64,000 nt of DNA from Selaginella tamariscina (lineage: Eukaryota; Streptophyta; Lycopodiopsida; Selaginellales; Selaginellaceae), in NCBI GenBank assembly GCA_003024785.1, contig PUQB01000188.1:343149-407148 (forward strand), read 5' to 3'. The notes under the pieces were generated by a model, which was not told where the DNA came from, did no database searches, and saw nothing but the letters and a program-made list of their open reading frames with translations. Below are positions 34,888 through 64,000 of this stretch, in pieces; within the stretch, counting starts at the first letter, position 1; every line of letters starts with the position of its first letter. The position numbers and the translations under genes were made by a program.

Positions 34888-35373
34888 AAGTGATGGAAGC
34901 AGAGGTGGAAGCAGATGGACGAAGTGGAATAGAAGTAAGAGGAATGGAAGAAAGACGAGGGAGAGTCAAACAAGGGGGAGACTTTTCAAAGTCACACTTG
35001 GCATGATTGCGAGTTAACCAATCCATACCAAGAATAAGGTGAAAAGCTTGACTCGGCACCACCCGCAAAGATTGAAGCTCGAGCTCACAATCATCCACAC
35101 GAACAACAATGTCCACTTCATCCCGGAACAAGCATGAGTATGTCCGTTGCCGTACAGAATGAAGACTGGTTCTACCGCACGACGCAAATGAAGGCTGCAA
35201 CGTGTAGCAACAGATTGAGAAACAGAGGACAAACTTGAACCTGTATCCACCAACACTGAAAGGAAAACAGGACGAGGCGTGCGATTAAAACGAGCTTGAA
35301 AAGTGAAAACCGGATGATTTGGTGCCGAGTGAACCCCTTGATGATACTCCCGAAAGAAAGATGGAGGGGTCAC
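34820..35373 (-). pseudogene. Gypsy-1 aspartic protease region
   Basis: The minus-strand frame 35373-35014 contains LVDTGSSLSSV, the D-T-G active site of retroviral-type aspartic proteases, followed by a hydrophobic strand. The frame changes near 35190, and a continuation (35200-34820) carries ILGMDWL, a conserved late protease motif. The enzyme would cleave Gag-Pol. It is broken by at least one frameshift. Confidence 0.7.
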
Positions 35374-35377
35374 TAAT

Positions 35378-36357
35378 TTATTCGCACGAGGACCCTCCTC
35401 TACTCGTGCGATTCGTCGTTTCCCGGAAGATCCACCGCATCACAACCTTCCATGCAGCAGCACCAACCGGACGTTGTTGACGCCATGGCCTCCATCCTGG
35501 AAATGGGGGACGCCAATCGGGAAACCGTTGACAGCGCCGATACGTGTGTCCAACCTCATCACATGCCCAACAACGAACTGCACGTCCACGTCCTCGTCCA
35601 CGGGCCCCACCTTGTGCTGGTACACGAGCGGCAACAGCCTCAACCTCCATCGGAGCAGGTCCATCCCCAACATGGAGTGGAACAAGAGCACGTGAAGGCG
35701 CAAGTGGGAGAGGTGACGACTCATATCGTTGTGCCAGCCTCAAAGCATCGTCAAGAGTCACTGGAGCTAGTGCATGCACAAGCCCCACAAGGTCTTGACG
35801 AAGTGCTGGCCACAACATACCTAACTTGATGCGTTCCGACATGTTAGGTTCTGCACGCAGCAAAAGGCTTCGAAAGCGAACACCAAACTGCATCACCGAC
35901 TCAGATGGCTCCTGACGAATACGATGCAACTGCTGAAAAGCATCATCACAGTCGTCCGCATGCCCAAATGCACGTTTGAAGATCTCTGGAAGAATATTCC
36001 AATCTCCACGAGTTGCAACGTCCAGACCATTGTACCACTGCAACGCCGTCCCTTGAAGACAAGTAGGAAACTCGCGCAAACACTGAGCACCGTCCCACGA
36101 ATGATATGTGGCAACCACAATGAAGTGGTCAAACCAATGGTACACATCATCTCCAGGATTTCCGCGAAAGAAATCCGGCCGGACACGGGGTTTGCAACAT
36201 GAGTAGGAGGAGTACCCTGGACTGTGAATGCTGCCATCAACTGAGAATGATTGTTCAGTTGCACACGCATGGCATCCAACAACTGCATGAGTAACTGCTC
36301 CACAGACAAGGGATTTGCCTGTTGTGGATTCATGGATGAAGAAGAGACAAAATCCAC
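35378..36357 (-). pseudogene. Gypsy-1 Gag
   Basis: The N-terminus starts at MDFVSSSSMNPQQ (36357), and a frame change near 36140 joins it to 36145-35378. The second part carries a typical retrotransposon capsid block (LQGTALQWYNGL...FKRAF...LHRIRQEPSESV). A CCHC zinc knuckle, CWACDEVGHTYRRC, follows an arginine/glycine-rich stretch. Gag forms the particle and binds genomic RNA. Confidence 0.75.
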
Positions 36358-36470
36358 AAGAAAGGAATAGATCTAGACAATGGAAAAGCTAGACCTAAGA
36401 AGACAGAGAAAATTAATAAAAATCCGAGCACTCCGTAGGGACAATTAGAGGTGCCCCTCACCTCCACCAA

Positions 36471-41159: not shown

Positions 41160-43024
41160 TTCCATGTTCTGGTGCAGTTGAAGACACCAGAGGTGGAGTT
41201 CTCTGGTAAAGCTTTGGTGGATAGCGGAGCGAACGCAAATTTCATCGACAAGAATTTTGCTGTCAGGCACGAGATCGTCTACATCCTTTGAAGACTCCTG
41301 GTTCTGTATGGGTCGTTGATGGACGAGATATCAAATTTGGAGCGATAACAAATGACACGGAGTTCGTTGAGGTCATTGCTTGCGGTGCTGTGTGCAACAT
41401 CTCCTTCAGTGTTGTTTCTATTCCAGACTCTACGATTATCCTTGGTTTGCCGTGGATCGAGTTGGTGGATCCTAGTTGGAGAGAACGTTTCATGAACAAT
41501 TTCCCAACTATTTCAACTCCAGCCACACTCTTGATTCCGATCCTGTTCCAGTTCCTCCTCCACTTCAAGTCTCGCATATCACCTTGAAGCAGTTCAAGAA
41601 AGATAGCCGACATGACCCAGCATCCGTGTTCGCGATCAAAGTCCATCCCTACTCTGCTAAGGATGATTCTATTCCTCCTACCTTACCAAAGCAGTATGCC
41701 GATTTCGCAGACGTCTTCGACAAAAAAAAAAGCTTATGCCTTGCCACCGCATCGTGAGTACGACTGTCCTATCGATCTCGTTGAGGGTAAGCAGCCGTCC
41801 TCCAGTCCCATTTACGGTCTCTCACCAACAGAGTTGGAGACATTGAGGAAATACATTGAGGAGAATCTTGTCACTGGATTTATCCGTCATTCGCGATCAC
41901 CGGCTGGTGCTCCAGTATTTTTTGTTTCCAAGAAGGATGGAAGTCTCTGGCTTGTGGTGGACTACAGAGATCTGAATAAGGTCACCATTCCAAACAAGTA
42001 TCCTCTCCCGCTCGTCTCCGACATGCTCGAACGTCTTTCTGGTGCCTAGTACTTCACAAAGATCGATTTAAGAGGAGCGTACAATCTCATCCGAATTCGA
42101 GAAGGGGACGAGTGGAAAACAGCTTTCCGTACACGCTACGGACATTTCGAGTACGTAGTAATGCCGTTCGGCCTGACAAATGCACCTGCTGTGTTCCAGC
42201 ACATGGCTAACGATATTTTCTGGGACTTCTTGGATTTGTTTGTCATCATGTACCTAGACGACATCCTGATATTTTCTAAGACTCGAAGAAGAACATGAAC
42301 GGCATGTACGGTTAGTCTTGGAGAGGCTTCGGAAGCACCACCTATTTGCCAAGTTGGAGAAGTGCTCTTTCAGTCAGCAGTCTGTCGAGTTCCTGGGGTA
42401 CATCATTTCAGCTGAAGGTGTTCACATGGATTCTACAAAAGTCTGAACTGTATTGGAGTGGGAGAGACCATCAAATGTTCATGATGTTCGATGTTTCCTC
42501 GGGTTTGCAACTTCTATCGACGTTTCGTTCGGGATTTCTCCAAGATTGCATTGCCATTGACAAAGTTGACTGGCAAGGATGTTCTATTTGTCTGGTCCTC
42601 TGAGGCTGAGGAGGCGTTCGAGTTCCTAAAAAAGGCGTTCACCTCGGCACCTGTTCTTATCCATCCTGACCCTGCAAAGCCATATTTCGTGGAAGTTGAT
42701 GCTTCTGACTTCGCCATTGGTGGAGTGTTGTCCCAGGAAGGTCCAGATCATCTTCTCCATCCCATTGCTTTCCATTCCCGTAAGTTCACTGCACCTGAGA
42801 TCAACTATGATGTCTACAACAAGGAGCTACTGGCGATTGTCGATGCCATTGAGGAGTGGCGCAGATTCCTTGAAGGTTCCTCGCATGTGGTTAAGGTGTA
42901 TTGTGATCACAAGAACCTCCAGTACTGGGCACAGCAGCACGAGTCCTCAATCGACGTCAGGCGCGATGGGCACAGTCTTTGTCCCAGTTCCGATATGAGA
43001 TTATTCATCGTCCTGGTCGTCTAA
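41160..43024 (+). pseudogene. Gypsy-2 protease, reverse transcriptase and RNase H
   Basis: The protease motif ALVDSGANANFID lies near 41210-41250. RT follows in shifted frames: [38 protein letters not shown], a TAG at 42047-42049, then [26 protein letters not shown] and YLDDILIFS near 42255-42280. RNase H ([16 protein letters not shown], then [20 protein letters not shown]) runs to about 43024. The Y-L-D-D catalytic motif is intact, but frameshifts near 41740, 42285 and 42450-42490 and the stop codon prevent translation. Confidence 0.8.
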
Positions 43025-44360
43025 ATGGCAAAGCAGATGCTTATCTCATCGCAGTTACCTAGCTCCAGTATCAGGTGAAATCCGATTTGATCAACAAAAC
43101 AAGTCATTCTGAGCTCCGACCAGTTGTTGGTGAACGCGCTTTCCCCGTTCTTCTGCTCCAGTTGACACTTCATTTTTGAATCTAATCCGAGAAAATCTCC
43201 CTCAAGACGAGTTTGCTCGTGATGTCCTTGCACATGTTCGAGCGAGTTCAGCCATTGTCTTCAGGGTCACAACTACGAGATTATGCTGCTTTCCATCTTC
43301 ATAATGGGTTGCTGTACCACACATCCAAATCTAGTTCCGGACGGAGAACTGAAGTTGCGAGCTGTCCAACACAGCTGCAGGATATTTTGGCATTTGAAAG
43401 ACGATCGGAGCTGGTACAACGGGTGTTCTCAGTGGCCTCGGCTTCGTGAGTATGTTGAGAGATTTGTGCGATCTTGTGACACATGCCAGCGTACAAAGCT
43501 TCCTCGTGATCGACCGGTTGGACTACTACAGCCTCTCCCTATTGCTCAGCGGCCATGGTCATCCATCACCATGGATTTCCTCACGGATTTACCGCTTCTA
43601 GAGGTTTGATGCTGTCCTAGTCATTGTTGACCGGTTCTCTAAGATGGCGCACTTTGTTCCCTGCAACAAGACATGTTCGGGTCTAATGCTGCAGATCTGG
43701 TGTACCAAGAGGTGTTCCGCCTTCATGGTCTCCCGATGAACTTGTCACTGATCGAGGTCCCCAGTTCACTTCGGCATTCTGGCGGAGATTCCTAGATCGG
43801 CTACGTATCACCGGGAAGCTATCTACTGCACATCATCCTGAAACAGATGGACAATCGGAGCGCACAATTCAGACTCTGGAACAATATCTCTGGTGTTTCA
43901 TTTCTCATCTGCAAGATGATTGGGTCGATCTCCTTCCTGCTGCCGAGTTCGCGTACAACAACACGGCACATCATCCATAGGTGTGTCGCCATTTTTCGCG
44001 TTCTCTGGTGTTTATCCTCCTGGTCCTACAGCTTGCCTGTGGTTCCTGGCCTCACCACTGCTGCCGAAGTGCAGCATCATCTTCAACGCGCTCGGGATTT
44101 GCAACAACAAGCTACTAATCGTTCCCGTTACTCTCCTCCAGCATTCACAATTGGTGACCAAGTGTGGCTCCTCTGGCGTCATTGGCCAACCACACGTCCC
44201 TGTGACAAGCTGGACTATCAACGCTTGGGGCCATTTTGGCATCATTGACAAACTCTTTGATGTGACGTTTCGTCCTCGAGCTTCCGCCAACCATCCAGAT
44301 CCATCCGTGTTCCATGTTTCTTTGTTGGAGCCTTATCATGCTCCTGGCCGACTTCTTCCA
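43025..44360 (+). pseudogene. Gypsy-2 integrase
   Basis: An HHCC-type zinc region ends CDTCQRTKLPRDRPVGLLQP near 43475-43540. The DDE core has ITMDFLTDLP for the first aspartate (about 43575), [10 protein letters not shown] for the second (43749) and [10 protein letters not shown] for the glutamate (about 43858). It continues to the C-terminal VFHVSLLEPYHAPG motif near 44308-44350 that precedes chromodomains. At least five frame changes are needed to read it through. Confidence 0.8.
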
Positions 44361-44580
44361 ACCACCTCCTCCAGTTACAGTTGCTGGTGAACCTGAGTTC
44401 GAAGTTGCTGCAATTTTTGACTCCAAACTTGTTCGAGGTCAGCTTCACTATTGTCGTGGACTAGATCGGTTATGACTTGGTGAATGCACTTGGGAGCCTG
44501 CTGCTCATCTCGTTCATGCTCCTGATCTTGTTGCCGAGTTCCATCAACGATATCCCTGTAAACCCCTGGACCAGTGACGA
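44361..44580 (+). pseudogene. Gypsy-2 chromodomain
   Basis: Downstream of integrase the frame reads EPEFEVAAIFDSKLVRGQLH, then ECTWEPAAHLVHAPDL and VAEFHQRYP. The order is that of a chromodomain (an E-x-I-L-D-x-R-like start, a WEP motif and a final amphipathic helix). In chromoviruses it steers integration to chosen chromatin. A TAG at 44473-44475 and later stops interrupt it. Its last helix is the source of the following minisatellite. Confidence 0.65.
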
Positions 44581-45600
44581 GCATCATTCATGCTCCTGAT
44601 CTTGTTGCCGTTGATGGAACTTGGGAGCCTACTGCTTCTCGTTCATGCTCCTGATCTTGTTGCTGAGTTCCATCAATGATATCCTACAAAACCTGGACCA
44701 GTGACGAGCATCGTTCATGCTCCTGATTTTGTTGCCAAGTTCCATTAACGATATCCTGCAAAACCTGGACCTCCTGCAAAACCTGGACCAGTGACGAGCA
44801 TCGTTCATGCTTCTGGTTTGTTGCCGTTGATGGAACTTGGGAGCCTGCTGCTCATCTCGTTCATGCTCCTGATCTTGTTGCCGAGTTCCATCAACGATAT
44901 CCTGCAAAACCTGGACCAGTGACGAGCATCGTTCATGCTCCTGATCTTGTTGCCGAGTTCCATAGGTTTTGCAGTGACGAGCATCGTTCATGCTCCTCCA
45001 TCAACGATATCCTGCAAAACCTGGACCAGTGACGAGCATCATTCATGCTCTTGATCTTGTTGCCGAGTTCCATTAATAATATCCTGCAAAACCTAGACCA
45101 ATGATGCGTTCATGCTCCTCCATCAACGATATCCTGCAAAACCTGGACCAGTGATGAGCATCGTTCATGCTCCTGAATCTTGTTGCCGAGTTATTAACGA
45201 TATCCTGCAAAACCTGGACCAGTGACGCGTGAGGCTCGTATCGAAGGGGGTAATAGTGTAAGCGTTCATGCTCCTCCATCAACGATATCCTGCAAAACCT
45301 GGACCAGTGACGAGCATCGTTCATGCTCTTGATCTTGTTGCCGAGTTCCATTAACGATATCCTGCAAAACCTGGACCAGTGACGAGCATCGTTCATGCTC
45401 CTGATCTTGTTGCCGAGTTCCATTAATAATATCGCAAAACCTGGACCATGACGCGTTCATGCTCTCCATCAACGATATCCCGCAAAACCTGGACCAGTGA
45501 CGAGCATTGTTCATGCTCCTGATCTTGTTGCCGAGTTCCATTAACGATATCCTGCAAACCTGGACCAGTGACGAGCGCCTGAGGCTCCATCATGAAGGGG
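44510..45600. repeat. ~72-bp minisatellite derived from the chromodomain end
   Basis: About 14 complete or partial copies of a ~72-bp unit containing CTCCTGATCTTGTTGCCGAG and AACCTGGACCAGTGACGAGC fill the space between chromodomain and right LTR. The unit corresponds to 24 codons of the chromodomain tail (HAPDLVAEFHQRYP). Some copies are truncated or fused, and some longer ones also carry GGAACTTGGGAGCC from the WEP region. Confidence 0.85.
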
Positions 45601-45608
45601 GTAAATAA

Positions 45609-46472
45609 TGTAAGAATCATGGTCATTTTTTTCCTTTCACAGGACTTGAACCCGAGACCTTTTGACTAACACACACATGTGTTAACCAACTGGTCCGTAT
45701 GAAGGAATGTTAGAAGTTTATTCATGGGGCAAAATTACAACCAACAATTCCAAGATTTTCCCCTACATACTATGCCGTTTGTACTACTTCTCTAGCTAGC
45801 TAAAAAAAATACTATGTAACCTTAGACCATGTTCCACTACCTCACTACGTCAGCAGCCACGTCGGCAGCCACATCAGCAGCCACGTCAGCAGCCACGCCA
45901 GCAGCCACGTCAGCAGCCACGACAGGCACGCAGGACAGACAGGCAGGACAATGCCAATCACCAGAAAGCTTACACGCACCTGGTTCCTCATCCGTGGGAG
46001 TCCACTAGCCACCTAGGTGGGCTCCATCTCCACTTCACCTGACGTTGAGTTTTACTCCAAGCAGTGGAAGCCACTGTCTTTCGAGAAAGTCCCGCTCCTC
46101 CAGATCACCTCGTTCCCAAGCAACCTCATGGTGAGAAAGCCACTGCCGACACCACCAACTGGTCCATATGATCCTGAATGCTGAACTACAACCATCAACA
46201 GCAAGATGTATATTCATATGCATGTTCCAGACCATTGTGGACCACACATTCCAACCAGTTGTGGATCACACATTCCAGACCAGTTGTGGACCACAACATC
46301 CTCAGGACCTCAGATATATAATAGGGTTCCAGTTCCAAGTTTTCAGAATCATTCAACACCAGTCTTCGGCCTTGTGTTTCATTTTGTATTCATTTCTTTT
46401 TTGAATACAATCTCTCCTTTTAAGGTTCCACCCTTGTTCTAAAGGTTTCGCCCTTTGCACAAGGTCGTGACA
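45609..46472 (+). repeat. Gypsy-2 3' LTR (~864 bp)
   Basis: It starts TGTAAGAATCATGG and ends CGTGACA. It contains the tRNA-like boxes on the minus strand (A box 45696-45686, B box GGTTCAAGTCC 45652-45642). The CACGTCAGCAGC-type repeat is longer here (45846-45930). Confidence 0.85.
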
Positions 46473-50112: not shown

Positions 50113-50132
50113 CCGGGGAATGGAGGATTAGC

Positions 50133-50320
50133 AAAAACCGGGCTTCGTACAACGGGCTTTTCGCATATTCCCGAATATCCAGGAATATTCTGTCAAATAA
50201 AAGGGAATATTCTAGAATATTCTGCCAAGTAGATTATCTTTAACTTTCATATAAAATGCCGACCAACAAGTGAAAAACGCTAATTATTTGCCGACTAGAC
50301 TTTACTATACCGACTAAACT
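50133..50320. repeat. Left terminal and subterminal repeats of the MULE-like element
   Basis: A terminal AAAAACCGGGCTTCG is followed by several GAATATTC palindromes (50165-50225). Three direct copies of a TGCCGAC/TACCGACT motif lie at 50257, 50289 and 50308. Such clusters are typical transposase-binding regions. Confidence 0.6.
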
Positions 50321-53300
50321 TAAAAGTCGCAGGTTCGCATTGCGCTTGCAACCAACCAATAACCGATGCACTTCTGCTGGAGTAAGGGTCCGCCTCTGTA
50401 AGAAGTAAGTAATCGTTGGGTCCAATCCAAGAACATGAGTGTACACAAAATACATGTGTTGGCAGGGGCTCCAGTTCTTGGCTTTCTGAAAAGTTGCACA
50501 AGTGCATGACGGAACAGAGAAATTGTTACCTTAGCAGATTGCATGCCTGCAGAGACAATGAAGGCCTCAGTCTTCCCTCTTTGAACCACCTCCACGTTGT
50601 TGATCCGACCTTGAAGAATCTTTGCCTGGTTGTAATGTTTCTCATGTTCCTTGGACATTCTTGTTGGTGTTCGCACACTCCGTCCATGGTATGTTGGTAC
50701 TCTATGTGCTCCCTCTCCTCTTGGTGGTGATGGTGTTCGATCCATTCGGCTACTACTGTCGTCTACCATTTCTTCAAATCCCTCCAACTTGAATCCTGCT
50801 TTCAGAAGAGCTTCAACCTCATTTGCATTCAAGTTTGTTCCTTTTTGAACTGGCCAAACCTCTGGAACTTCTGGAATACTCTCAGGAGGAATCCCTGCAT
50901 ATGGTCGTCTGAAGCAACAAGAATCGCGTGGGCAGAACCATAACATCTGATGAGTGAACTCAATGTTCCCAAATGCATTTGTATATTGCCGTCTACCGTG
51001 AAATCCTGGTGCCGGTACACGATGTGGATATCCTATGGGTCTGCCACACTTGCTGTTACCGTCCTGAGTGAGACCTAGACATTTCACCTGACTTGCCTCC
51101 CCAATGCGTCTGATGGCCCACTGAGTCATCAACGTCTCTCTTTCAGTGACATTGACATCTTGAAACTTGAGTTTTTTCCTGCGTGCATTTGGGATGACTT
51201 GTTCTGCATATTGTGTGTCATGTCTATGTGTACGAAGTGCATCAATCCCATGGTCCCCAGTTGACGGTTGACGAACGGTTCGAACACGAACATTTGTTGT
51301 AGAGGCAAACTCTGGACTTGCAAGATGCTCTTCATCACTAACAAGATTTGCAAAAGTTGTTGGAGACACTGATTTTCCCGCTGAAAGTTTCTGCTGTGCA
51401 CGTTTCAGAAGAGTTTCCATGGAAGGACCTGTGCCTGAATATCTCCCTTCAAATGATGCCTTGACCTTTGCACTTTGGAAAACAGCATCTGTTAAATCTA
51501 ACATTGTTGCCTCCAACAAAGGAACACGCTTCGTCAGCCTTGCTCTTCGTGCTCTTGCATGAACAACTTCGGAGTTGTTAGTGGTAGGCACATTCGCAAC
51601 ACCATCTTCTGTCAAGTCAATTATCTCTGTCATGGAAATATGATCTTCATGTCTTGCCCACCATGACAGCCATGTTTGCAAAGCGCTAACGTTACTGGAC
51701 CTGCCTTCCCAAAATGACTCCAACATTACTCGTCGTTCCAACTTATCTTGGTTGGTTAGTGCTGCAGGCCATGAGCGTGCAAGGTTCATGTGCTCCTCCC
51801 TGTGTTCCTCAAGTATCCACTTCTTTGTAACTTGACGCACTGACTGCATGTAATGGAACAAACAACTCCTTTCTCTTCCTCTCATCTTTGACCCATTGTT
51901 GAAAACTTGACGCAATGCTAACCAAATTGCAACCTGACTCATCTGACATGAACCCCGCAAAGTTCACATTATGAAGTCCTTGCTTGCTGCACACTTGAAG
52001 CATAGTGTTCAAAAATTTGATCACCGCCACACTATCCTCCCTGATCATGTCACCATAAGCAAGTGTCACCATCGACCTTAAACTACACAAACATAAGTGC
52101 ATTATATTAGTAAGTATTTTAAAACATAGATATGTTAATACTTACAATGGATCATAGAGATGTATTCCCAGTGTACACCAATCATCAATACGATATGTGT
52201 GGTCTAGCACCACCCACTGCTGTTCGAGATCACCTCCAGATTGACACCTTCTAATGTAGTCTATTCCGGATCCTGGGCCGGCAACCGTCATTTTGAAGAT
52301 TAAAGGCTGCTCTTCAGCTCCGTTGAGGTCCATTCCGGGTATGTGGATAACATGTATGAATGGGATTGATAGCTTCTTCTTTAACTGCAGAAGTCCTTCG
52401 TAACCTTCTTTGAAACGAGTGTCTCTTGTTCTAGCCTGAGATATCCATTCTCTTGTTCTACAGTGGAAAGGTTAAGCATCTCCAAAAGGAAATAATAATT
52501 TTTTTGCTTACCGGCGGTGATTTGTGAGTGGTAGTAGATCTGACAGAACCTTGTCGTATGATACATCTCCAGAATCTGTTACCAGTTTTTCCAAAATTAT
52601 ATTGCGTGCTGCTTGAAACTCTATGACACGTTGATTAGTTCTTGGGGTTGCAGCGACTGCTTTGTTGATTGTCTCCTTAGCTCTGTCTTTAGAGACCATG
52701 GATTCGGGTGGTCTACGTGGGTGTTGATGTTCTCCAAGATGGATGAAAAGCCTCGTGCATGTGATATCATCTGGAATTATGTAATATGCAACAACGGAGC
52801 ATGTCTGCACTAGAAGGGGCTCATTGTTGCAATGCACACACTTCATTCCAAGCACTCTACCATCTGAAGATAACTGGACTTTATCAATGGTGCCCTTAAA
52901 TTGGCAGTCATTTGCTTTCTTACTGAAGCTGATGAACGGACATGTTTCCTTTACGCATTTCATGTGGCCAATACATGAACTGCGACTAACACGAGCTGGA
53001 ACATTCCAATGTGTTGTGCAGCGTTGAGTCCAGTAATCACACCCATCCTTCCTATTCATCCCTTTGTACTTGTCCTTCATTGTTTCGTGTGCTGGCAACT
53101 CGTAAATCACATTTCCGTTGCAATCTTCTGGGACCTCAGCAACTTGCTGAATCGATGACGAGACCACCAGTTGCTTCCCAATCCTACATCTCTGACTATT
53201 GCGAAGTATTGTTACCATAGAATTGTCCCGATCTGTTGTCTCCAACCGGAATAGCGGTCCTTTGGAAGGAAGAAGTGTGTAATACACAAAACTGCTAGCT

Positions 53301-53491
53301 CTTGCCCCTTCTGGTTCTACCTCAACATTCGCAGCATCTCCACCAACAACAGACATCAAATGCAGCACTTTAAAAGATTGCCAAGGTGGAATGTCAAATG
53401 CAGACCTGAGATCTGTTTCAAAGACAAATGCAATACCATCTTCATCTGCAGGGAAGTCCTTGTCAACACCATTGTAGCTGATTCTTGCCAT
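50240..53491 (-). pseudogene. MULE-type DDE transposase, three exons, frameshifted
   Basis: The start at 53491 encodes MARISYNGVDKDF. Exon a is 53491-52512, exon b is 52457-52146 and exon c begins at 52076; all splice sites are GT-AG with matching phase. Exon a ends with a cysteine/histidine cluster (CTTHWN, CIGHMKC, CVHCNN, HLGEHQHPRRP) like the WRKY-GCM1/FLYWCH zinc fingers of MULE transposases. Exon b has WVVLDHTYRID, a likely first catalytic Asp. Exon c has GFMSDESGC, a likely second Asp, and RSCLFHYMQS, the family C-x-H motif. A one-base break near 51925 and another near 50430 disrupt the frame. Further on come EIIDLTEDG (a SUMO-interaction-like motif) and cysteine pairs near 51050-50910. 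The third catalytic residue was not identified. Confidence 0.65.
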
Positions 53492-53533
53492 GTAGCAAAA
53501 ATGGAACAAACAAAAGTTAAAATTCAAAGACAA

Positions 53534-54429
53534 TGAACATATTACACACGATGGTTAATGTGTTTGTTAGTCGTGAGGCAATCATTTCATTGACAAATAT
53601 TAAAAATAATATTAATTGCGTGCGTCTGGGTAGAAGAGTGAAATTAATTTACTGCGTCTGGGTAGGTTTTTTTAAATTAAAAAGTTTTACTATGTACAAG
53701 TGGCGATCATGCATGCAATATGTTTACAGAAATTAGGTTGGTTTTTAATTGATTTAGGGCGGCTAGGGTTTTGCAATTAGGGCGGCTAGGGCAGCGAGGG
53801 CGGCTAGGTTTTCGTGGAGCAGCTTTGGGGGCATAGCGTGGAGCAAGTGTGGCTCCAGGGATTAATCACAATAGGCTTCCATTGAGGGGGTGAGTATTTT
53901 CTGATTTCTTCATGATCTGCTCATGATCTTTCATGATCTGTTCATCTTTTTACATCTCTTCACAGTTGCAAGAAATCCGAGTCGGCCTGCCGACTCGGAC
54001 TGACTTCGTTGTCCGTCCCAGTCGGCAGGCCGACTGGGGTGGACTGTTCCAGATCCAGTCAACATTTTGACCGGGTTGACTGTTCCAGCCCCAGTCAGCA
54101 TTTTGACTAGGGTTGACTGTTCTAGTCCCACCTAGCATTTTGACTGGGCCTTGTTCGTTCCCAGTCCCAGTCGGCATGCCGACTGGGCCTCCCTTTGTGC
54201 CAGTCCCAGTCGGCATGCCGACTGGGACTCCCTTTGATGCCAGGCCCAGTCGGCATGCCGACTGGGACTCCCTTTGATGCCAGTCCCAGTCGGCATGCCG
54301 ACTGGGACTTACAGCAACTGCTCTCTCAGTCGGCACGCCGACTGTGAGGGCTAGTATGTTTTTTTAATTTTTATTAAACATCTTTGAACATTTATTACAG
54401 TTTTTTGTTAAACCTTATTGCTTTTGTAG
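53534..54429. promoter_or_regulatory. Divergent intergenic region of the MULE-like element
   Basis: About 0.9 kb separates the two oppositely transcribed genes. It holds a GGGCGGCTAGGG-type repeat (53756-53810) and the palindrome array at 53980-54342. Promoters for both genes should lie here; no clear TATA boxes were identified. Confidence 0.5.
53980..54342. repeat. AGTCGGCATGCCGACT palindrome array
   Basis: Seven good palindromes with the core GTCGGC-NN-GCCGAC lie at 53981, 54021, 54170, 54209, 54249, 54289 and 54329. Two or three decayed copies (GTCAACATTTTGAC type) lie between 54057 and 54140. Spacing is close to 40 bp, about four helical turns, so all sites would face the same side of the DNA. 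Confidence 0.8.
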
Positions 54430-57400
54430 ATGCGCTCTTCACAACGTTTACAAGAAAAGAAGATGAAGGAGCCTACTGAGAGAGAAGCAGAAGCTAGAGC
54501 TGCAATTCAGAGAGGGCGTCGGGGTCGTGGGAGAGGAAGTAGGAAGCTGGCTGTGGTTCAGGAACAAGGACCTTCAAGTGATGCTCCAGTTGAACAGGCA
54601 AGCCAGCAGGACTGGTCAGGAGAGCAAGAGGATGTAGTTCAACCCCAACAAGAACAATCAGACTTTGTTGAAGAAGTTGAGGATGATGTCTTACCACAGG
54701 AGACACAGGAGCAGACAGAAGGCACACAAGCCTCATGCGCAGTGACTTTGTCGAGTGACGAAGAGGATGAACCCAAGAGCAAGAAGAGACGACGCAAAGC
54801 TGCTGGAGATTCAGAGGCTGCTAAGAAGAAGAAGAAGGGGAAAGCAGAAGTGCCAGATAATGAGGAAGTTTACAACATTGCAGCCAGCATGCATTCGGAG
54901 AGTGCAGTGCGTCTTCTCGCGAAGATCACAATCCGAGAATATGGAGAGGCACCGGATGTCCCTATTTGCCGAATTCTGGGAAATGAGCAGGTGCGGAGAG
55001 TCAATCCAGCGGATCTGGAATCTTTGACTAGGAGTTTCAAGAAGGCAGTTGGTTATTTGCGCAACACCACTCAGTTCATCCTTCAAGTTGGGGACCCCAT
55101 GACAGATGCAGATCTGGCAGCATTGAGAAGCGATGAAGCGATGTATGCTCAGCATTTGGCTTTTGAGGAGGAGCTTCAGTCCGACATGTTCCGGCAATGG
55201 GCACCAATGCTTTCGATGAAGAAGTTCATCTGTTGGGATGGTAATCACAGGCTAAAGGTGCTTCAGAAGCTGTACACAGAAGACACGGAAGATAAGATCA
55301 GTGGGCAGTGAGAGTGCGTTCAGGCTTCATCCGTGCTGGGGTCATGGATAATCTTCAGCTTGTGACAATGTTTCAGCAAATTAATAGGTAAACATAGTGA
55401 CCTCTAGATCATAGGATTAACTAACTTCGAGCTTTTCAAATATGCAGTTCCTCCGCAACGGCAGTGCAAACCACACTGCCACATCTTCTGCTATCTGTGA
55501 AGACATGTTGCACCAGTGAGGAGGGCACAGCGAAGATCTTGGCCAGGCTCAGTGACAAGGAACGAGATGACATAAGAAAGTGGAAGGAAAGCGCGACTGG
55601 ACAACAAGCTTGGCATCCACTTCCGAATTTGATCTGTGCAAAGATCTTTTTTGAGGTACCATGTCTCACACTTATATTACTTAGTTGATTACGTCTGTGA
55701 ATTACAGAGTGAGATTGAGGATGATCTTGAGAAGGCTGCAAGGGCATCCAAAGGCAACAAATACCAGGAGCAACAACAGGTCTACATTAAGCATGACAAG
55801 CGCATGATGAAGATCTTAGCCATCATCGATCCTGCATTGGGTGAAGAGTGGTTCGACAAGGTGACCCAAATCACATGGAAACAATGCAGATGGATGGGGT
55901 TGGAAAAGCTGTACGCGCTTTCAAGGGCGAGAATTCCAAACGAGACGAGAATCATGTACTTCAATAAACTGGTACGTCTCGATCTGAAGAGAGAGCAAGA
56001 GACACTTGGATTGCCGGGTGTTCAGGATAAGGAGTGGATAAGGTGGTTTACTATCGATTTGTATTGGCGGGCAATCAGAGAGGAGGCAGTACAGATTCTC
56101 ACGGGACTCATCGAGGATGGCGAGTGGAGCAGGCCGGTTACAGATTTCACGACTTGGTGCGATGAAGTGCGGGTAAAATGCAAGAACGTGATGTTCCAGC
56201 CATTCCATGAGTGTGTGAAGTTCACTTACTCCATAGAGCCGAAAGAGTTCCTCGAACACGAAGAGACAGCAAGAAGGATGATTTGGAGGTAAGGATGATC
56301 TTCTTGACATTGTTACATTCTGACACTACTATATGTTCATTACAGGTATGTCGCAGCGAGAAAGGTGCCTCACACACAGACTATGGTATTCTGGTCAGAT
56401 TACATGGAAGCACCACACATGTGGTCGAAGACAAGATCTGGCCTGACAGAGTTCGAGCGTGTACACGTACCGTTCTGGCTTGATTATCCACCTGGGCAAC
56501 CACCAACATGGGAGAAGGATCTCTACAATGAACACTCAAAAGATCTCCCATGCATCTCATGGGATCCGGCAGAGGTCGACTTCATTAAGAAGACAAAGGC
56601 CAAGGCAAAGCGGCGTCAGCCTGTGCAGCAGTCAAAGAAGACCTCAGATACAGTAGCTGGCACCTCCACTACTCGCGATCCAGCTGCCTTCTTCAATTTA
56701 TCTGAAGTGCTACCATCGCAGGGAACCATGGACATCAAGGATGACTTGGTCACATTCGTCCCTTCACTTGCTACAACTCGAGGTGATAATTTCTTGGCGA
56801 TTGATGACATCGAGGAGATGCAACAGGCCGTGCTCACGGATGAGAAGGAAGAGGAGGTTCCTGACGCTAGACTGGTTCCTTATAGAAAAGTTCAGACACA
56901 GGTGGCCAGGTACCATACAGCTGACAGCCAGACTCGCTACCAGCATATTGCGGGAGAATATGGTTTCAACTTGGTGATCTTCGACCTTCCAAATGGGACC
57001 TTGCCAGGAAATACAACGAGTGATACGCCATACCTCTACCTTGATCCAGTGAAGTTCGATGAAGCACTCCAGTTTGCAGGTATGCATATGGCTGCAAATG
57101 GTTGGTTGGTTGTGTTTGCTGCAGCAAACACCTGGGATCAAGTTGTCCGAGCTGCAAGTGTGGTGGACCTTCAACTTGCTGCAACGTACTACATCTACAG
57201 AGGGCGTGGTTGGGGCTACCGCAACAAGATGAAGGTACTTTTTTCTTTATTCATGAAGTTCATTAATGATTTTGATGTTTTAACAGGAGAGCATCCTGCT
57301 CCTTCTTGTCTTCCAAGATGCATCTAGAGGATTGCGCGATAATCCACTGCGTTTGTCATCAACAATTCTTGTTGATAATCCTGAGCGGTTCCAAGAACCA

Positions 57401-57748
57401 TGGTAGGCATTTCATTTCAACAATTTAAGTATTTACCATTATCTTCACATGCAGGATGGACTACCAACCGAAGAGCACTCGATTGATGCAGCTCGTGATA
57501 GAACGACTCACCCGGCCAGGTGATCTTATCTGGGATATAGGCAGTGGTACGGGGTCCTCAATGCTTGCAGCTATCGAGCTGGGGAGAAACATTGTTGGGA
57601 CTGAGAAGAACCCTGAGCTCGGGAAATTGCTATGAACAGGATTAAAGAGAACATCCAGCCAGAGGAAATCCCAACCCAACCAATAGCGACGTCAAGTAGG
57701 ACTGGTGGTTCACGAATTGCAGCATTGCTCAATCGTAAGAAGAAGTGA
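54430..57748 (+). CDS. ParB-like domain fused to N4/N6-type DNA methyltransferase domain, spliced
   Basis: Six exons: 54430-55387, 55448-55655, 55708-56288, 56346-57234, 57287-57402 and 57455 onward, with GT-AG introns of 52-60 bp. The start MRSSQRLQEKK leads into a basic, acidic and glutamine-rich region with an NLS-like KSKKRRRK. A ParB/sulfiredoxin-like domain follows (RRVNPADLESLTRSF, then FICWDGNHRLKVL). A long middle region has no recognised domain. The C-terminal domain has FNLVIFDLPNGT, at the place of the methylase D/N/S-P-P-Y motif, followed by PGDLIWDIGSGTGSS and LGRNIVGTEKNPE, the SAM-binding motif I. Motif IV before motif I is the beta-class order. The usual PP[YFW] is LPN here, so activity is doubtful. 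There is a one-base frame break after DKISG (about 55300). A premature TGA lies at 57633-57635, and an alternative frame continues to 57748. ParB-methylase fusions are familiar from phages and bacteria. Confidence 0.65.
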
Positions 57749-57938
57749 CAAGTGTTGAATTGTACTCTTTGGTGTTGAAATAAAACTTTAATAATACAGT
57801 ATAAACATGGCTATGATTAAATATTTTTTGTTGTTAATTGCCGACTGAGCCAAAATCCTAAATTCTAAAATATTTAGGAATATTCTAAGAATATTCTGGT
57901 AGATTCTTTAGAATATTCCGGGTCCAAGCCCGGAAGCC
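57749..57938. repeat. Right subterminal and terminal repeats of the MULE-like element
   Basis: This non-coding end carries TGCCGACT at 57839-57846, several AGAATATTC-type palindromes (57880-57910), and the terminal GGGCTTCC repeat in inverse orientation to the left end. Confidence 0.6.
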
Positions 57939-57949
57939 CTCTTTTTCCG

Positions 57950-58099
57950 GGGAATGGTAGCTGATCGCTCCGCCACCGCCCCAATTCTCTAATCTCATCT
58001 CAGCCCACATGCTGCCATCACTTTCCTGACGTGGGTTCCGATTCATCCCGCACTGTTTGAAATTACCCTAGTTCCTTCTACTAGGTTTTCCTCTCGCAG
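57950..58099 (+). promoter_or_regulatory. CR gene promoter and 5' UTR, copy D, abutting the transposon
   Basis: Matches 10785-10934 of copy B, including TGACGTGG at 58027-58034. Sequence farther upstream has been displaced 7.8 kb by the MULE-like element. Confidence 0.45.
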
Positions 58100-61000
58100 A
58101 TGGTGAGAGTCTTGCGGCACGATCACCCTCCTGAAGAAAGCAGCTTCACGGCAGAGCAGCTGGAGGCGAAGTATGGCTGCGGCAAGTTTCTGCCCGAACA
58201 AAACGTCTATCTCTGCGGTATGCGCTTAGAACCTTCTAGCTCCGACTGACTGATTATCTCTCTCTCTCCCTCCCCCCCTCATCAATTCTAGCAGTCCAAT
58301 CGAGCAACCAACGTCGAATGGATGTGCCGGCGGGGAATGGGGGCGGCTCAGGCGCAGAGTTGATCTCCTCCAGCGCTTGACGCAGGCGCCGGGAGTGCTG
58401 AGGTGCTAAGAGCGACGGAGACATTGTATAAAGCGATTACGGAGGTGCAGGTTGCGATGCGAGGATCTGACAAAGAATGGGCAGATAGAGCTGCCGCTGC
58501 TGAACCGGTGCAGCCTCTCCTGCTGGTAACTCCCCCGAGTCCTCCTCCGGTGGAGGAGCAACAACAAGTCGCAGGGAGTGTGAAGGAAGGTCCCGAGGGT
58601 GGAACCTAGTGTACCAAGATCCTCTGCGTGTTGTGGATGTGTGGATGGAATGAGTGGGCGCTTGACACACATCATGCCGCCTGGACGATGGCGCTGCAGA
58701 GTTCGGGTTGGGGGAAGTCGAGATCGATCCAGGAGCTGGCTACCAAAGGCTTCCACGTCGCGTACGTTTCGTTTATGAGCCCCGGCGCGACGGGCGTCCC
58801 CGGGCGAAGTGCAGTTGCCGACGTGCTGACTTCCGATACCAACGACCCCCGCTGCATTGCGGCATGGGTGGCCGCCATCCTCTTGCAGATAAAGGACGCA
58901 AGCCCGGGGAAGTGGAGGGAGACGCAGGCGTCATTCCCCAAGGAGGGACAAAACCCGGAGAAGTGGAAGGAGGCGCAGGAGTCATTCCACAAGGAGGTGT
59001 CCCAGAGGTATCTCAAAGTGGATTCCTGTAGTTTTTGGGCTGACATTTGTGTTTACCAGTTACAAGGAACTCAAGGAGGACGTGACTGGAACAGTGCCTC
59101 ACCAGTCTCCTGCTTCCCGGAGAGCAGTGGAATTCCTGATCAACTGCGGCAATGGATTGACGGCAAGCTGAGCGGAGTCTTCACACTGGAAAGGAAGGTG
59201 GAAAGGAAGGTCGTGGAAAGGAAGGTCGTCTTCTGTCTGGATGAAGCCGCCTCCTTGTTCAAGGAGCGGCCAGGTTCGTTCTTGGCTTTTAGGAGGTTCT
59301 TCTCGGCGATACCCCACCATAGGAAGCTCTTCGGTCTGGTGGCTGACACAGCAGGGAAGCTAGGTCTTATTTTCCCACACAGAATGTTCGATCCGAGCGC
59401 GCGGGTGTGGATCCAGCGGCTAAGTTTTTTCAGCCCGTGTGGATGGTGGGAAGCGCGCACAGGGAGCCGGACAAGCTAAAGCGCCTGATGTCGGAGCAGA
59501 AGGATGTGGCTGCTGTTTCGGAAGACTTTATAAGGGAGCTCTTCAAGATGGGGCGCCCGCTCTGGCGTGCTCTGCTTGGAAACAATGCGTCCCTGAAGGG
59601 TGCAGTGAAGTTCGCCCCAGCCAGAAGCTGTTGAACGGGGTGTCTCTGGTGAGTCTGGAAAAGACGGAGGTCCCACCAGAAAAGAGCATGATCATGCAGG
59701 CAATGGCAACGGCCATCTCGGGTGGTGGCCGGGTTGGAGGTGGCTGCGTGGGGCGGACCTCGCCCAACACATGGTGGGCTGGCCATATGCGCAGCGTGAG
59801 TCACGTAAGTGGGGATCGGGAGCGTATCTTCACTGCTGACGTGATAGAGCCGATCCTGGGCGAGGCGGCGGTCACATCTTGGCCAATGTGGAGGTGCTGC
59901 TTCTTCTTTCTCCAAAGCATGGGTGGGGTATTGAAGCAAGCCTTTGTTGTGGAGGGGCCACGAGGAGAGATTGTGGGAGGCTGCTGCTGGTGCTGGCCAT
60001 GCATCATTGTTGCAGGCTCGAGCAGTCTGGGGAGCACGAGATGTATAGCCACCCGGTGCCCCTGGGCAGCTTCCTGTCGGTGCTCTGTAGCCGCAAGGTG
60101 ACGGCCAAAGGCTTCATTTTTTTCAACCGTTCATGTTCCTCAACAGGAAGGAAATAAGCAGGAAGCTTCTCCTCTTCTGTTTTCTTTGCGGGTTTGCCAT
60201 CATCCCGCAAAGACCAAGCGGGTTCGACGTTCTATTGCCCTGGCTCGTTCCAGGACCGGTGGCAAGTACCAACTGGATCCAGGTCGGATGCGAGCTGTGC
60301 CTGTTCAGATTCCGAAACAGGCAAGCCGATGCTGTGAAAGCTGAAAAGCTTTTTAGGCATGTCTTTCCTCCTGGTAAGCTTGTGTTCTTGCCTCAGTGCC
60401 AACTTCAGTTTGTTTTTTCCAGGACCCGAAGGTCAAAGAAAAAGAAGAAACAAGCAAGTCCACGGAGCGGAGACCAGCAAGTATGTTTGTTGGGCGGAGA
60501 CCAGCAAGTATGTTTGTTGTCATTGTGTTAAATCAAAACTTAAATGTTTTATTTTGGACTTCAGGCCCGAGCAGGCAAGTACTTTCAAGCATGACGGGTA
60601 GCTTGTTTCTCTCCCGTGTATCTCAGCTTGCATTCATTCTTTTCTTTGCAGCCCTCCCCCGGAAAGAGCTGCAGCGAAGGTTGCGCGTTTTAAAAAATAA
60701 AGAACTTGCTGATGAGGATGAAGTTGAAGAGTTCCAAGAGCTCTGGAAGCCCGGCCTCATGGAACATTTTTGACGAGGGCAGGTCAGTTTGATTTGAGTT
60801 TACACTCGATCGGACTGTTGTTTTTTTTAGGCCCTCAAGAAGCAGCGGACCACTGTGGCAAAGCAGGAGGAAATCAAGCTTGGAGACGAGTGCGGCTTGT
60901 ACCTTCACGTCAAGGGGAAAGCAGCTGTTGAGCATGAGTATAGCACGATTCAAAACTGCTGTTGGTTCTACTGTGTTGTTTTCAGGTGGATATAACTGAG

Positions 61001-61292
61001 GATTCAAAGGTGCTCGTTCTTCGGGGTGTACGATTCCCATTCCTGGAGGTATGTCATTCATTTTACGGTGTCATTTGCCTTAAAGTCTCTTCTGTTTGTC
61101 CTGAGATCAGGGACAGGGACGGGTCTCCGCTGAGCTGGAGAAGATGTGCGACGCATTCTTCAAGGTGGAAGATGAGCTTCGAAGTCGATGAGAAGAGAGG
61201 GAAGATTGTGCGGCATAATTTCAGCAACTACTTCAAGCTGCGAAGTTGGGAAAAAAGTTTATGAACCGGATCTACTTGATATCATATTGTAA
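58100..61292 (+). pseudogene. CR-type NTPase-nuclease gene, copy D (exon 2 inversion)
   Basis: Exon 1 (58100-58217) starts MVRVLRHDHPPEE and is intact. The following ~130 bp (about 58268-58398) is the reverse complement of the equivalent part of copy B, taking out the splice acceptor and the start of exon 2. Later parts are well kept: the Walker A motif SSGWGKSRS near 58703-58730, and Walker B VVFCLDEAASLF near 59224-59260, read within one long frame, 58628-59479. Repeated GGAAAGGAAGGT units lie just before Walker B (59188-59228). One-base indels break the rest, for example at 59403, 59612-59616 and 60425. The last exon ends at TAA 61290-61292. It cannot make the normal protein. Confidence 0.65.
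58268..58398. other. Micro-inversion in CR copy D
   Basis: TCATCAATTCTAGCA and CGCTTGACGCAGGCGC here are the reverse complements of sequence at about 11124-11235 in copy B. Both outer edges are short, G/C-rich stretches. Confidence 0.85.
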
Positions 61293-61683
61293 ATTATACA
61301 TCTTGATATTATCATTATTATTATGTTCTTAAAAGCTTGTGGATTATCTGTACTCAGCTTTTAAGTGCATTGAGGGCTAGGTTAGAACATTGAAATGGTT
61401 TTTTTCTTTTTTAAATTTTATTAACAGAAAAATAAAACTAACCAGAATTAATTTGTCACCTAAATTATAAGGCTGTTCAATATCGGGTTAAAAATTTGAG
61501 CAAAAATCTTCTGCCGCGTAAGTTGATATTCCTGTTTAATAAGTTTTCAACCATTACTGAGTAGTTGCATTACATATTAATAAATTTATTACAAAACAAA
61601 GAGGTAAAATTAGTGCGTGCGTGCGTGCGTGTGTAAGAGAGAGAGTGCAGTATGTGTCACTAATTAACATATTATATCAGGAG

Positions 61684-62200
61684 ATGGAGGGAACTGCTCA
61701 GGAGAAGATGGATGAGGCTGGTCAGAAGAAAGAGGTGAATTTTTAATTTTTTTTAATATCAATTTTAAATGTATTAATTTTGTTTCTATGTTATTTAAAA
61801 TTCAAAATTAGGAGGTTAAAGGGTCAGCTCAGGAGAAGATGGCCATGCTAAGGATTCTGCAAGCAATGCTTCTCAGGCTACGAAAGAGAAGACTCAGCAG
61901 TCCAAAGAACAAACTGGTCCAGCAGGTAAGTATATGTTATGTATATAAATTTAAATGAAATATGTTATTAAAGTTCAGTATTTAAAGTGACTTTTATGGA
62001 GGAACCAGCAGAGGAATTTGTCTCAGGAACTCTCTCTCTCTCACTCACTCACCACGCACGCACATGCATATGTGTATCTAACGTAGGTTCTTTTGGTGAA
62101 CGTAGATGGGTGAAAAGATGAAGGAGAGTGCTGAGAAGACAAGGGAGGCACTCGCTGGAGCCGGGGAGAGGGGAAGGAGAGACATGCATGTACATACTAA
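61684..62200 (+). pseudogene. LEA-like gene, copy D (frameshifted)
   Basis: Exon 1 (61684-61734) is intact. Exon 2 (61812-61925) has lost one G at GATGGCCATG and about 9 bp before the donor, removing the GGFFQQ end. Exon 3 starts at 62106 and is shortened by loss of the second AEKTRE repeat. It shares the same leader and introns as the other copies. Confidence 0.55.
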
Positions 62201-62259
62201 AATTGATATCGATTTTAACAAAAATAAAAATAAAATTAAAAAAATTACTTAATAAATGC

Positions 62260-63003
62260 TTATTTCAATGCTTATAAAATTAGGTGAGTGACTACATCTC
62301 AATTTGTTTATGTGTAGGTGTGTTATAAACATAAGGTTTTTTTTAACATTCGAACTTAAAAAAATCATATAAGTTAATTCACTCTATGTATGTTTGTTTA
62401 ATAAGATATACATGTATATGTCATTCTTTTTTTCTTTTTAATTTTATGTTTTTAATTAATATGATTATGTGTATATTTAATAAGTTAAAGCTCAATTTAT
62501 AATACGTTTCTAAATTATCAATATAACACCATATTGATTTATTTATTAATTCTTTTTTTTTAAATTAATAAGAGGAAGTGAATTCTAAAGCTTATTACTA
62601 TTATAAATACAAATTCAAAAATGAAAAAGGAAAAATAATTAAATATTAAGAAGATATTATGAATAATTATTAATCTTTATAATATGCAATAGATTGAAAT
62701 TGAAACCAAGACTAATTTTTATATGTTCAATTTATTTATCTTTATTAAATTCTTTGCACAACACCAAACACAATATATTTTACTTATAATATTCTTATAA
62801 ATCAAAGTTTAAGTTGATTTATAATTAATTACATCATAAAGAGCTTCTTTACTATCATTTACATGCATATTACAAATAATAATAATAATAATAAACAATT
62901 AAATATATTTAATATAAATGATTAAGAATGATAAAATATACTAAAATAAGTAAAAAGCTTATAAAATGCCACATAAACATATGCATGTGCACATATACAT
63001 GTG
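62260..63003. other. AT-rich spacer, copy D
   Basis: Copy of 3570-4295. No gene is seen. Confidence 0.7.
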
Positions 63004-64000
63004 TGTCATAGTTTTTTATATGACTCCTCTTTACTTTGGACGTTGACTGTTGTTACCTACTGTACTATGTTGACAAGCCCTAGATGTAGTGAGAAACAGC
63101 CCCGCTTAGTGCACTTAGGTGTTTAGGGTAGTCCGGCCGGCTGTCCTTAGATATCTCGAGAAACTCTAAGCGAAGGTAGCACTTACCTTCTAGAAAACTC
63201 TTACCCTCGTTTTCCGTGTCCCGGTTGGATTAATGGCTAGTTCCGGTGAGTTCGGCATGTCGGATATGCTTAGAAATACCCCCAGGTTTGACAGGTTAGG
63301 GTTTAGGGGTCGATGGATAACTCACCAAGTATGTTCCCTCTGGGAATGAGATTTCAGTGCTAGCCCACTTATGTAAACAGGAAAACAGGGGGGGGGCCTC
63401 TGTCACATAAATAAGGTAGTATATAGGAGTGAGGGTTCCTGGGTTCATGACTGAGCTCGTTACTCTTCTCCCGGTGCAAGCTCTAGCTTGTGTCGTCAAG
63501 GCACAACCCTCTGTTGTGCCGCCCTAACTTCCAGATGCCAGGGGTACGTCCCACCTTCGGGGTAGCTTACCCTTAACGTTGGCGAATCCATGCCTGGGAG
63601 GTCTTGTCGGAATGCACGTTCCAAGAGGCAGAGGTTGAGGCTTGTCTCCAGCCTCCTCCTCCACGTCAAGCTAGGTGTAGCACTCACGGCCAAGCAAGGC
63701 ACATCCGTGTCCTTGTCCAACTGTGGCGTGGGATCTTGTTTGACAGGTTCACATTACTGGTTCCTGAGGGTTCATTGAGGGGTTCTAGAGTTGGCATTTA
63801 GGAGCCACGTTTGTGGCACTTGGTGCAACTCTTGAATCTAAGGGCTATGGCATGATAGCCCACATCGGGGAAGGCAGTGTCACATGGAGATGTGACACTG
63901 GGCTAAACGTCACATGGTACAACGCCTGAGGCACGCCCTTTGGGGTTATGTCATGGGCTTGTCGCCAAGGGGTTGGATACTTAGCAAACAGACATGCTTG
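63004..64000. mobile_element. Solo LTR, copy D, cut by the window end
   Basis: It starts TGTCATAG after ATGTG-like sequence and matches the first kilobase of 16373-18131. It has a longer C/G run near 63390 and a few substitutions. The right end lies outside the window. Confidence 0.65.

What the first reader, a model, noticed from the sequence alone, without database searches (positions are those of the whole stretch)
50113..57949. A plant MULE-like transposon carrying a ParB-DNA methyltransferase fusion gene
Seen: an 11-bp direct repeat around a 7.8 kb insert, absent from the empty site in copy B; a Mutator-like transposase on one strand; and on the other a six-exon gene with a ParB-like DGNHRL motif and a SAM-binding DIGSGTGSS motif. 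Known: ParB-N4/N6 methylase fusions are common in phages and bacteria, and some eukaryotic elements carry cytosine methylases. Inference: this element acquired a prokaryote-type modification module, perhaps to mark its own ends, evade silencing or help a sister copy persist.
Basis: partly seen in the sequence, partly recalled or inferred. Interest (0 to 1): 0.9.

Follow-up and report, generated by a model that had tools for sequence, protein, structure and literature searches.

The report
Jumping gene carrying methyltransferase-like companion
This is a recently amplified DNA transposon, probably in a lycophyte plant, many of whose copies carry beside the transposase a second gene resembling a bacterial DNA-modifying enzyme, with an array of short inverted DNA repeats between the two genes that may be the element's own recognition site.

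Summary
Window 50123-57947 is one copy of an ~8-kb DNA transposon: a transposase and, divergent from it, a six-exon gene. A 9-bp target duplication matches exactly in 12 of 18 copies with readable ends; substitutions among 21 copies stay under 0.6%. The second protein ends in an N6/N4-type DNA methyltransferase domain (36.8 bits, cut-off 26.7), but motif IV reads DLPN, not DPPY. Its ParB-like part is not detected by profiles and rests on DGNHRL. A ~60%-identical second family keeps both genes (3 of 5 places fetched) with silent sites saturated and pN 0.23-0.29. New here: inverted TGCCGACT half-sites fill the space between the genes in both families (13-30 per family A copy, ~0.3 expected), while AATATTC repeats mark the ends. 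A ParB-methyltransferase gene opposite a transposase is already in print for a brown alga, citing green and red algae. So: a new variant of a known kind, with a testable candidate self-recognition site. Which protein binds there, and any enzyme activity, are unproven.

The parts
50114..50122 (.). left target-site duplication CGGGGAATG
   Evidence: empty site at window 10782-10792
50123..57947 (.). whole element (family A); right terminus short of about 9 bp compared with other copies
50183..50222 (.). left subterminal AATATTC/GAATATTC repeats, found only near the two ends in the 19 family A copies scanned
50320..52082 (-). transposase exon 3 (end approximate), SWIM-like zinc finger near its C-terminus; frame-broken in this copy
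52146..52457 (-). transposase exon 2
   Evidence: introns of 54 and 63 nt
52512..53491 (-). transposase exon 1
53988..54345 (.). intergenic array of inverted TGCCGACT half-sites; four perfect palindromes centred on CCCAGTCGGCATGCCGACTGGG at 54166-54187, 54202-54229, 54245-54266, 54282-54309
54430..55387 (+). second gene exon 1, with the ParB-like DGNHRL motif; frame-broken near its end in this copy
55448..55655 (+). second gene exon 2
55708..56288 (+). second gene exon 3
56346..57234 (+). second gene exon 4, with the motif IV position DLPN
57287..57402 (+). second gene exon 5
57455..57748 (+). second gene exon 6, with SAM-binding motif I DIGSGTGSS (PF01555 match); frame-broken in this copy
57839..57846 (+). 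single TGCCGACT site near the right end, also present near the right end of the five family B loci scanned
57878..57918 (.). right subterminal AATATTC repeats
57948..57956 (.). right target-site duplication CGGGGAATG

Best explanation
The thing is an autonomous-type, recently amplified, MULE-like cut-and-paste transposon with two divergent genes (shown, except that the MULE label is partly by resemblance and transposition was not observed). The transposase recognises the ends, where AATATTC repeats and short imperfect inverted repeats sit (inferred). The second protein, with a ParB-like N-terminal part and a beta-class DNA methyltransferase-like C-terminal part, is an accessory protein kept by the element. 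It binds the inverted TGCCGACT half-sites between the two genes, and the single sites near the ends, and so acts on copies of its own kind. There it controls transcription and/or sets a non-host methyl mark or an anti-silencing state (inferred; catalysis uncertain).
For: Element: 9-bp duplications exact in 12 of 18 copies, in 4 more after a one-base shift; near-identical copies; both genes together. Methyltransferase: PF01555 36.8 bits, E 5.4e-9; hhalign of the A and B domains against eight prokaryotic proteins, E 4.5e-8 for that single comparison; those eight, the best database hits for the domain though not significant (E 0.12-0.97), all carry PF01555, and the three examined have a sub-threshold ParB_N match. 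Kept by selection: family B, ~60% identical, silent differences saturated, pN 0.23-0.29. DGNHRL, DLPN and DIGSGTGSS agree between A and B in the alignment; DLPN is read in the 5 family B copies where that stretch is in frame (L029-L032, L055). Recognition site: 4-13 exact 16-bp palindromes in each of 21 A copies; TGCCGACT 13-30 times in each of 19 A copies with both ends, 0.2-0.3 expected in the two A copies modelled. Family B has the same half-site in other spacing in the same place, while the intergenic DNA shares little else. Genome-wide 1142 palindromes, reversed control 0; of the 50 sites listed, 47 lie within 4 kb of a second-gene place or 55 (compared by hand). Motif arrays in plant MULEs have a precedent in VANC (PMC5735166, passages).
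Against: No binding data: the array could serve the transposase or a host factor. The ParB-like part does not score in profile searches. Motif IV lacks the PPY/PPW-type core, so methylation may not occur. Two of five family B places (L029, L031) show no transposase in the stretch fetched. Degenerate B copies vary in the motifs (L030 and L031 DRNHRL, L054 DGNYRL, L030 DIGSGTGSL). B copies other than L032 have few exact half-sites (L033 7, L030 7, L031 6, L029 1). pN/pS used only segments with at least 40% local identity, which lowers pN, and no control without that filter was run.
Confidence: 0.42

Rival explanations
1. The methyltransferase domain is catalytically dead and serves as a DNA- or SAM-binding scaffold that helps the transposase or regulates transcription; DIRS1 retroposons also carry a methylase domain described as inactive.
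For: Motif IV reads DLPN in both families, so the change is old and kept; DIRS1 precedent (PMC3537659, passages).
Against: Motif I (DIGSGTGSS) is kept; the first D and the third-position P of motif IV are kept; whether DLPN is inactive is not known.
Confidence: 0.28
2. The TGCCGACT array belongs to the transposase or to host transcription factors of the divergent promoter, and the second protein works without sequence-specific binding there.
For: The array sits between the divergent genes; tandem arrays expand easily (general knowledge); a single half-site also lies near the left end in 18 of 19 and near the right end in 19 of 19 family A copies.
Against: The ends carry a separate repeat, AATATTC, absent elsewhere in the 19 A copies, a better candidate for the transposase; the half-site is shared where the rest of the intergenic DNA is not.
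Confidence: 0.18
3. The ParB-like part is a nicking nuclease or NTPase that assists excision or replication rather than a binding domain.
For: The ParB domain of the Bacillus cereus ParB-methylase Bce_0392 is reported to have non-specific nicking activity (PMC5512222, passages).
Against: Does not explain the conserved array; the ParB assignment itself is weak.
Confidence: 0.08
4. Chance neighbour: a captured host or contaminant gene inside a MULE (Pack-MULE-like).
For: Gene capture is common in plant MULEs (general knowledge); two of five family B places show the second gene without a transposase in the stretch fetched.
Against: Two diverged families have both genes with protein-level constraint; 32 of 40 transposase places and 19 of 20 second-gene places show both.
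Confidence: 0.02

Closest known systems
ParB-methyltransferase accessory gene of the Ectocarpus transposon Sola1-1_Ec32 (PMC12477816, passages read)
   Same: one protein of similar size (1104 aa there, 1015 here), described there with ParB-like and N4/N6 methyltransferase domains, transcribed opposite to the transposase in a DNA transposon
   Different: there a 21.5-kb Sola1 family of a brown alga; here an ~8-kb MULE-like element, probably of a lycophyte, with a palindrome array. Sequences could not be compared. That paper cites green and red algal cases (Iyer 2011, Petroll 2025); the latter was looked up and not held, the former was not looked up
VANC anti-silencing proteins of Arabidopsis VANDAL MULEs (PMC5735166, passages read)
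   Same: plant MULE with an accessory protein; short (8-bp for VANC6) motifs in tandem repeats in non-coding parts of the element
   Different: the passages read do not describe VANC as a methyltransferase; here no binding or demethylation data exist
Prokaryotic ParB-N6/N4 methyltransferase fusions (P0001-P0008)
   Same: order ParB-like then beta-class methyltransferase in the three examined; C-terminal half alignable (116 columns, E 4.5e-8 for one comparison)
   Different: 424-425 aa, DPPF at motif IV in the three examined; here 1015 aa, six exons, a long middle region without a known domain, DLPN
DIRS1 retroposon methylase domain (PMC3537659, passages read)
   Same: transposon-borne adenine-methylase-like domain with likely loss of catalysis
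   Different: different element class and different partner domains

Membership tests
MULE/MuDR superfamily | target duplication of about 9 bp | tested here: met
   of 18 copies with both ends found by pattern: 12 exact, 4 matching after a one-base shift (L018 with a further one-base difference), 2 not matching (L025, L027); 2 of 20 copies had no end found. Two pairs share an insertion site
MULE/MuDR superfamily | SWIM zinc finger after the catalytic domain | tested here: inconclusive
   PF04434 19.5 bits against cut-off 19.6, E 7e-4 on the C-terminal piece; 14.5 bits, E 0.026 on the whole protein
MULE/MuDR superfamily | match to a MULE transposase profile | tested here: not met
   no Pfam transposase family at E up to 10; no homolog at E up to 0.01 in the protein search
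MULE/MuDR superfamily | DDE catalytic triad with C/H motif | not tested
   candidate D and CxxH positions seen by eye only
N6/N4 DNA methyltransferase (PF01555), beta class | profile match above the curated cut-off | tested here: met
   family A 35.1 and 36.8 bits, family B 38.5, cut-off 26.7; the match covers only the last quarter of the profile
N6/N4 DNA methyltransferase (PF01555), beta class | catalytic motif IV (D/N/S)PP(Y/F/W) (consensus recalled) | tested here: not met
   DLPN in both families; the motif position is assigned by eye and is not among the confidently aligned columns
N6/N4 DNA methyltransferase (PF01555), beta class | methyl transfer to DNA | not testable with these tools
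   needs an enzyme assay or modification-aware reads
ParB/sulfiredoxin-like domain | profile match | tested here: not met
   no ParB match in Pfam, PHROGs or NCBIfam at E up to 1, none in Pfam at E up to 10 for family A; ddrB-ParB E 0.21 on one trimmed family B piece of the three ParB-like pieces tried; hhalign E 0.064 over 13 columns, controls 0.55 (reversed) and 0.21 (methyltransferase half)
ParB/sulfiredoxin-like domain | fold | tested here: inconclusive
   single-sequence AlphaFold2 model of the window piece, mean pLDDT 45.9, all helical
ParB-methyltransferase transposon accessory genes (Ectocarpus type) | two domains in one long protein, opposite strand to the transposase | tested here: inconclusive
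VANC-like anti-silencing systems | accessory protein binds element-specific tandem motifs and removes methylation | not testable with these tools
   only the motif arrays are shown

The most novel reading that the evidence does not exclude
A parS-like self-recognition system in a plant transposon: a ParB-derived DNA-binding domain reads inverted TGCCGACT half-sites in the divergent promoter and brings a methyltransferase that places a mark (6mA or 4mC) which the host's 5mC machinery does not make. The mark distinguishes and protects family copies, and the spacing of the half-sites has changed between families while the half-site stayed.
Probability: 0.22. Interest if true: 0.88.

Novelty: new variant of a known kind. 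Interest (0 to 1): 0.62.

Why it matters
Transposon-borne prokaryote-type DNA methyltransferases are proposed, in the paper seen here, as a class of accessory proteins that bind and modify their own element; the passages I read name no target site. This element offers a concrete candidate target, present in two diverged families, in a genome with at least 40 near-identical places and about 136 family A arrays if 1142 palindromes are divided by the mean of 8.4 per copy. Binding, modification and anti-silencing can therefore be tested directly. If the enzyme is active, a vascular plant would have a selfish source of 6mA or 4mC, which bears on the disputed presence of these marks in plants (general knowledge). 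If it is dead, it is a further case of a kept but disarmed methylase in a transposon.

Tried and rejected
Chance-neighbour reading largely rejected. Protein database: the full second protein gave nothing at E 1e-3, the transposase (residues 100-600) nothing at 0.01, the methyltransferase domain 8 hits at E 0.12-0.97, none significant. Viral contigs: only two short peptide patterns were scanned, no relative. Phage records: 301 with matches at E up to 0.1; best E 2e-5 among the 15 rows shown; none covering 80% of the query. PDB: MboIIA E 4.6e-4 for the methyltransferase, nothing relevant for the ParB-like part. AlphaFold2 on the ParB-like piece uninformative; no fold search was run. Further families suspected (L035, L037) turned out to be family B. 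The first impression of hundreds of near-identical copies was dropped: the 645-739 first-look candidates were mostly not scored, and the palindrome count points to about 136 arrays. L040, the one second-gene place of 20 without a transposase where expected, has a transposase hit on the same strand about 10.7 kb away, perhaps with an insertion between. Of 40 transposase places, 8 had no second gene within 5 kb in the incomplete lists; one is that C562 case, 7 are unresolved. A plant-family control search (PF03195) did not complete, so the host name, Selaginella tamariscina, is recalled only; a paper search for it did not settle it.
Full report
What is there. The window lies in an assembly of 300.7 Mb in 1391 contigs. 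The insert is one copy of an ~8-kb element whose complete copies begin GAGGATTGGCAAAAACCGGGCTTC and end GGAAGCCCTCTTTTTGTCGGGACTC. Aligned by hand, the first 25 bases and the reverse complement of the last 25 agree at 17. Twenty copies were fetched, chosen from the best matches. In 18 of them both ends were found by pattern: 12 have exact 9-bp duplications, 4 match after a one-base shift (L018 with a further one-base difference), 2 do not match. Two pairs of copies share an insertion site, so the 18 are not all independent.

The two genes. The transposase (minus strand, three exons) is 1017 and 1018 aa in two copies where it was spliced through, with a SWIM-like finger at the C-terminus just under the Pfam cut-off (19.5 of 19.6 bits). 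No Pfam transposase model matches, so MULE membership is likely but not formally met. The second gene (plus strand, six exons) is open for 1011-1015 codons in 5 of 20 copies. Combining the exon frames, 4 of 20 copies have both genes open. One open copy has a changed residue in motif I. The window copy is frame-broken in both genes. One-base gaps, mostly in homopolymers, are the commonest difference between the first pair of tandem units in the window, so assembly error is a possible cause.

Domains of the second protein. The C-terminus matches N6_N4_Mtase above its cut-off in family A and family B, over the last quarter of the profile. It also matches phage DNA methyltransferase families (PHROG 67, E 2.1e-10) and, in the PDB, MboIIA and DpnA. 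In a profile comparison with eight prokaryotic proteins the C-terminal half aligns with E 4.5e-8, for that single comparison. By eye, motif IV lies before motif I as in the beta class, but reads DLPN where active enzymes have DPPY-like sequences (consensus recalled). DLPN is present in family A and in the 5 family B copies where that stretch is in frame. The N-terminal region has DGNHRL and a pattern that, by eye, fits ParB; degenerate B copies read DRNHRL (L030, L031) or DGNYRL (L054). Profile searches do not detect ParB and the single-sequence fold is poor. Indirect support: the 8 best, non-significant, database proteins for the methyltransferase domain all have PF01555, and the three examined show a sub-threshold ParB_N match at their N-terminus.

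A kept pair of genes. The PF01555 search of the genome scored 150 of 739 candidates, all 150 over the cut-off. Five places chosen from that list because they looked different belong to a second family B. Three of the five have both genes (L032 and L033 divergent, L030 internally rearranged); L029 and L031 show no transposase in the stretch fetched. Between A and B, silent differences are saturated (pS 0.74-0.82) while pN is 0.26-0.29 for the second gene and 0.23-0.26 for the transposase (only well-aligned segments were counted, which lowers pN, and no unfiltered control was run). Twenty further second-gene places were picked from the upper part of the list, not at random: 17 have family A transposase DNA where expected, 2 have family B transposase, 1 has none there. 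Of 40 transposase places, 32 have the second gene within 5 kb on the expected strand in incomplete lists, and 8 do not. Within family A, copies differ from the commonest base at 0.03-0.36% of sites in the second gene and 0-0.57% in the transposase; C-to-T plus G-to-A make up 28 of 70 and 46 of 72 changes (gaps not counted). This points to a recent burst.

The array. Between the divergent genes lie perfect 22-bp palindromes CCCAGTCGGCATGCCGACTGGG, about 40 bp apart. The 16-bp core occurs 4 to 13 times in each of 21 copies. The half-site TGCCGACT occurs 13 to 30 times in each of the 19 A copies with both ends, against 0.2-0.3 expected from a first-order model for the two A copies modelled. In family B the same half-site forms inverted pairs about 20 bp apart, repeated about every 137 bp, in the same place: 16 exact sites in L032, 7 in L033, 7 in L030, 6 in L031, 1 in L029. 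The two intergenic regions share little else: the best blastn match (E 0.004) lies over the motif, and a GGCTAGGGTT stretch is also shared. A single site lies near the right end in all 19 A copies and all five B loci, and near the left end in 18 of 19 A copies; one B copy has one-mismatch forms there. By contrast AATATTC lies only near the two ends of the 19 A copies; the two B copies scanned have one additional site away from the ends. In the whole genome the 16-bp palindrome occurs 1142 times and its reversed control never. The first 50 sites form 8 clusters; 7 clusters (47 sites) lie within 4 kb of a second-gene place, the eighth (C13, 3 sites) has none in those incomplete lists. At 8.4 palindromes per copy (mean), 1142 corresponds to about 136 arrays, so the 645-739 first-look candidates must not be read as intact copies.

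How it probably works. The separation of two kinds of sites, end repeats and a central array, suggests two DNA-binding proteins: transposase on the ends and the second protein on the array. That is inference; nothing here shows which protein binds. The closest functional parallel is VANC of VANDAL MULEs, which binds short motifs in tandem repeats in non-coding parts of the element and causes loss of DNA methylation (PMC5735166, passages). Whether the second protein methylates is open: SAM-binding motif kept, catalytic motif altered. DIRS1 retroposons offer a precedent for a kept inactive methylase (PMC3537659, passages). A ParB-methylase of Bacillus cereus offers one for a nicking ParB domain (PMC5512222, passages).

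What is known. [quoted passage not shown] So the kind is known. A paper on fungal transposons carrying TET/JBP genes (PMC12730594, passages) does not mention ParB or MULE. In nine topic searches of the held library (listings and starts of abstracts) I saw no such gene reported for a MULE or a lycophyte; subscription papers are mostly not held. The new points are the MULE-like vehicle, two families with constraint on both genes, the changed motif IV, and the half-site arrays.

Noticed in passing
window 29317-29784: An array of palindromic repeats around GGCGGGATTAATCCCGCC (period about 45) directly upstream of a minus-strand, transposon-like gene at 27471-29077 with a weak DUF7869 match (19.8 bits, cut-off 26). 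It may be another element with an inverted-repeat array at its promoter.
   Followed up: no
window 1-26754 and 58391-64000: Tandem ~12-kb units (about 91-98% identical pieces) repeating a gene without a Pfam match (ORF 3-1151); one-base gaps are frequent among the differences.
   Followed up: partly
window 32129-36388 and 41588-44387: Two Gypsy-like retrotransposons; gag and integrase domains found by Pfam in the first, the second seen by eye from its reading frames.
   Followed up: no
window 44488-45614: Complex nested tandem repeat (units of 18, 72 and 218 bp) beside the second Gypsy-like element.
   Followed up: no
L018/L026 and L019/L023: Pairs of element copies share the same flanking sequence, so some contigs may be haplotypes or segmental duplicates and copy counts somewhat inflated.
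   Followed up: no
L017: One copy with an open second gene differs from another open copy at 10 residues, all between residues 855 and 1005 and including motif I; 6 of the 10 look compatible with G-to-A changes.
   Followed up: no
L030: Family B copy with an internal rearrangement: transposase and the start of the second gene have changed order and strand.
   Followed up: no
L031: Family B copy with a second gene but no transposase match in the 8.5 kb fetched.
   Followed up: no
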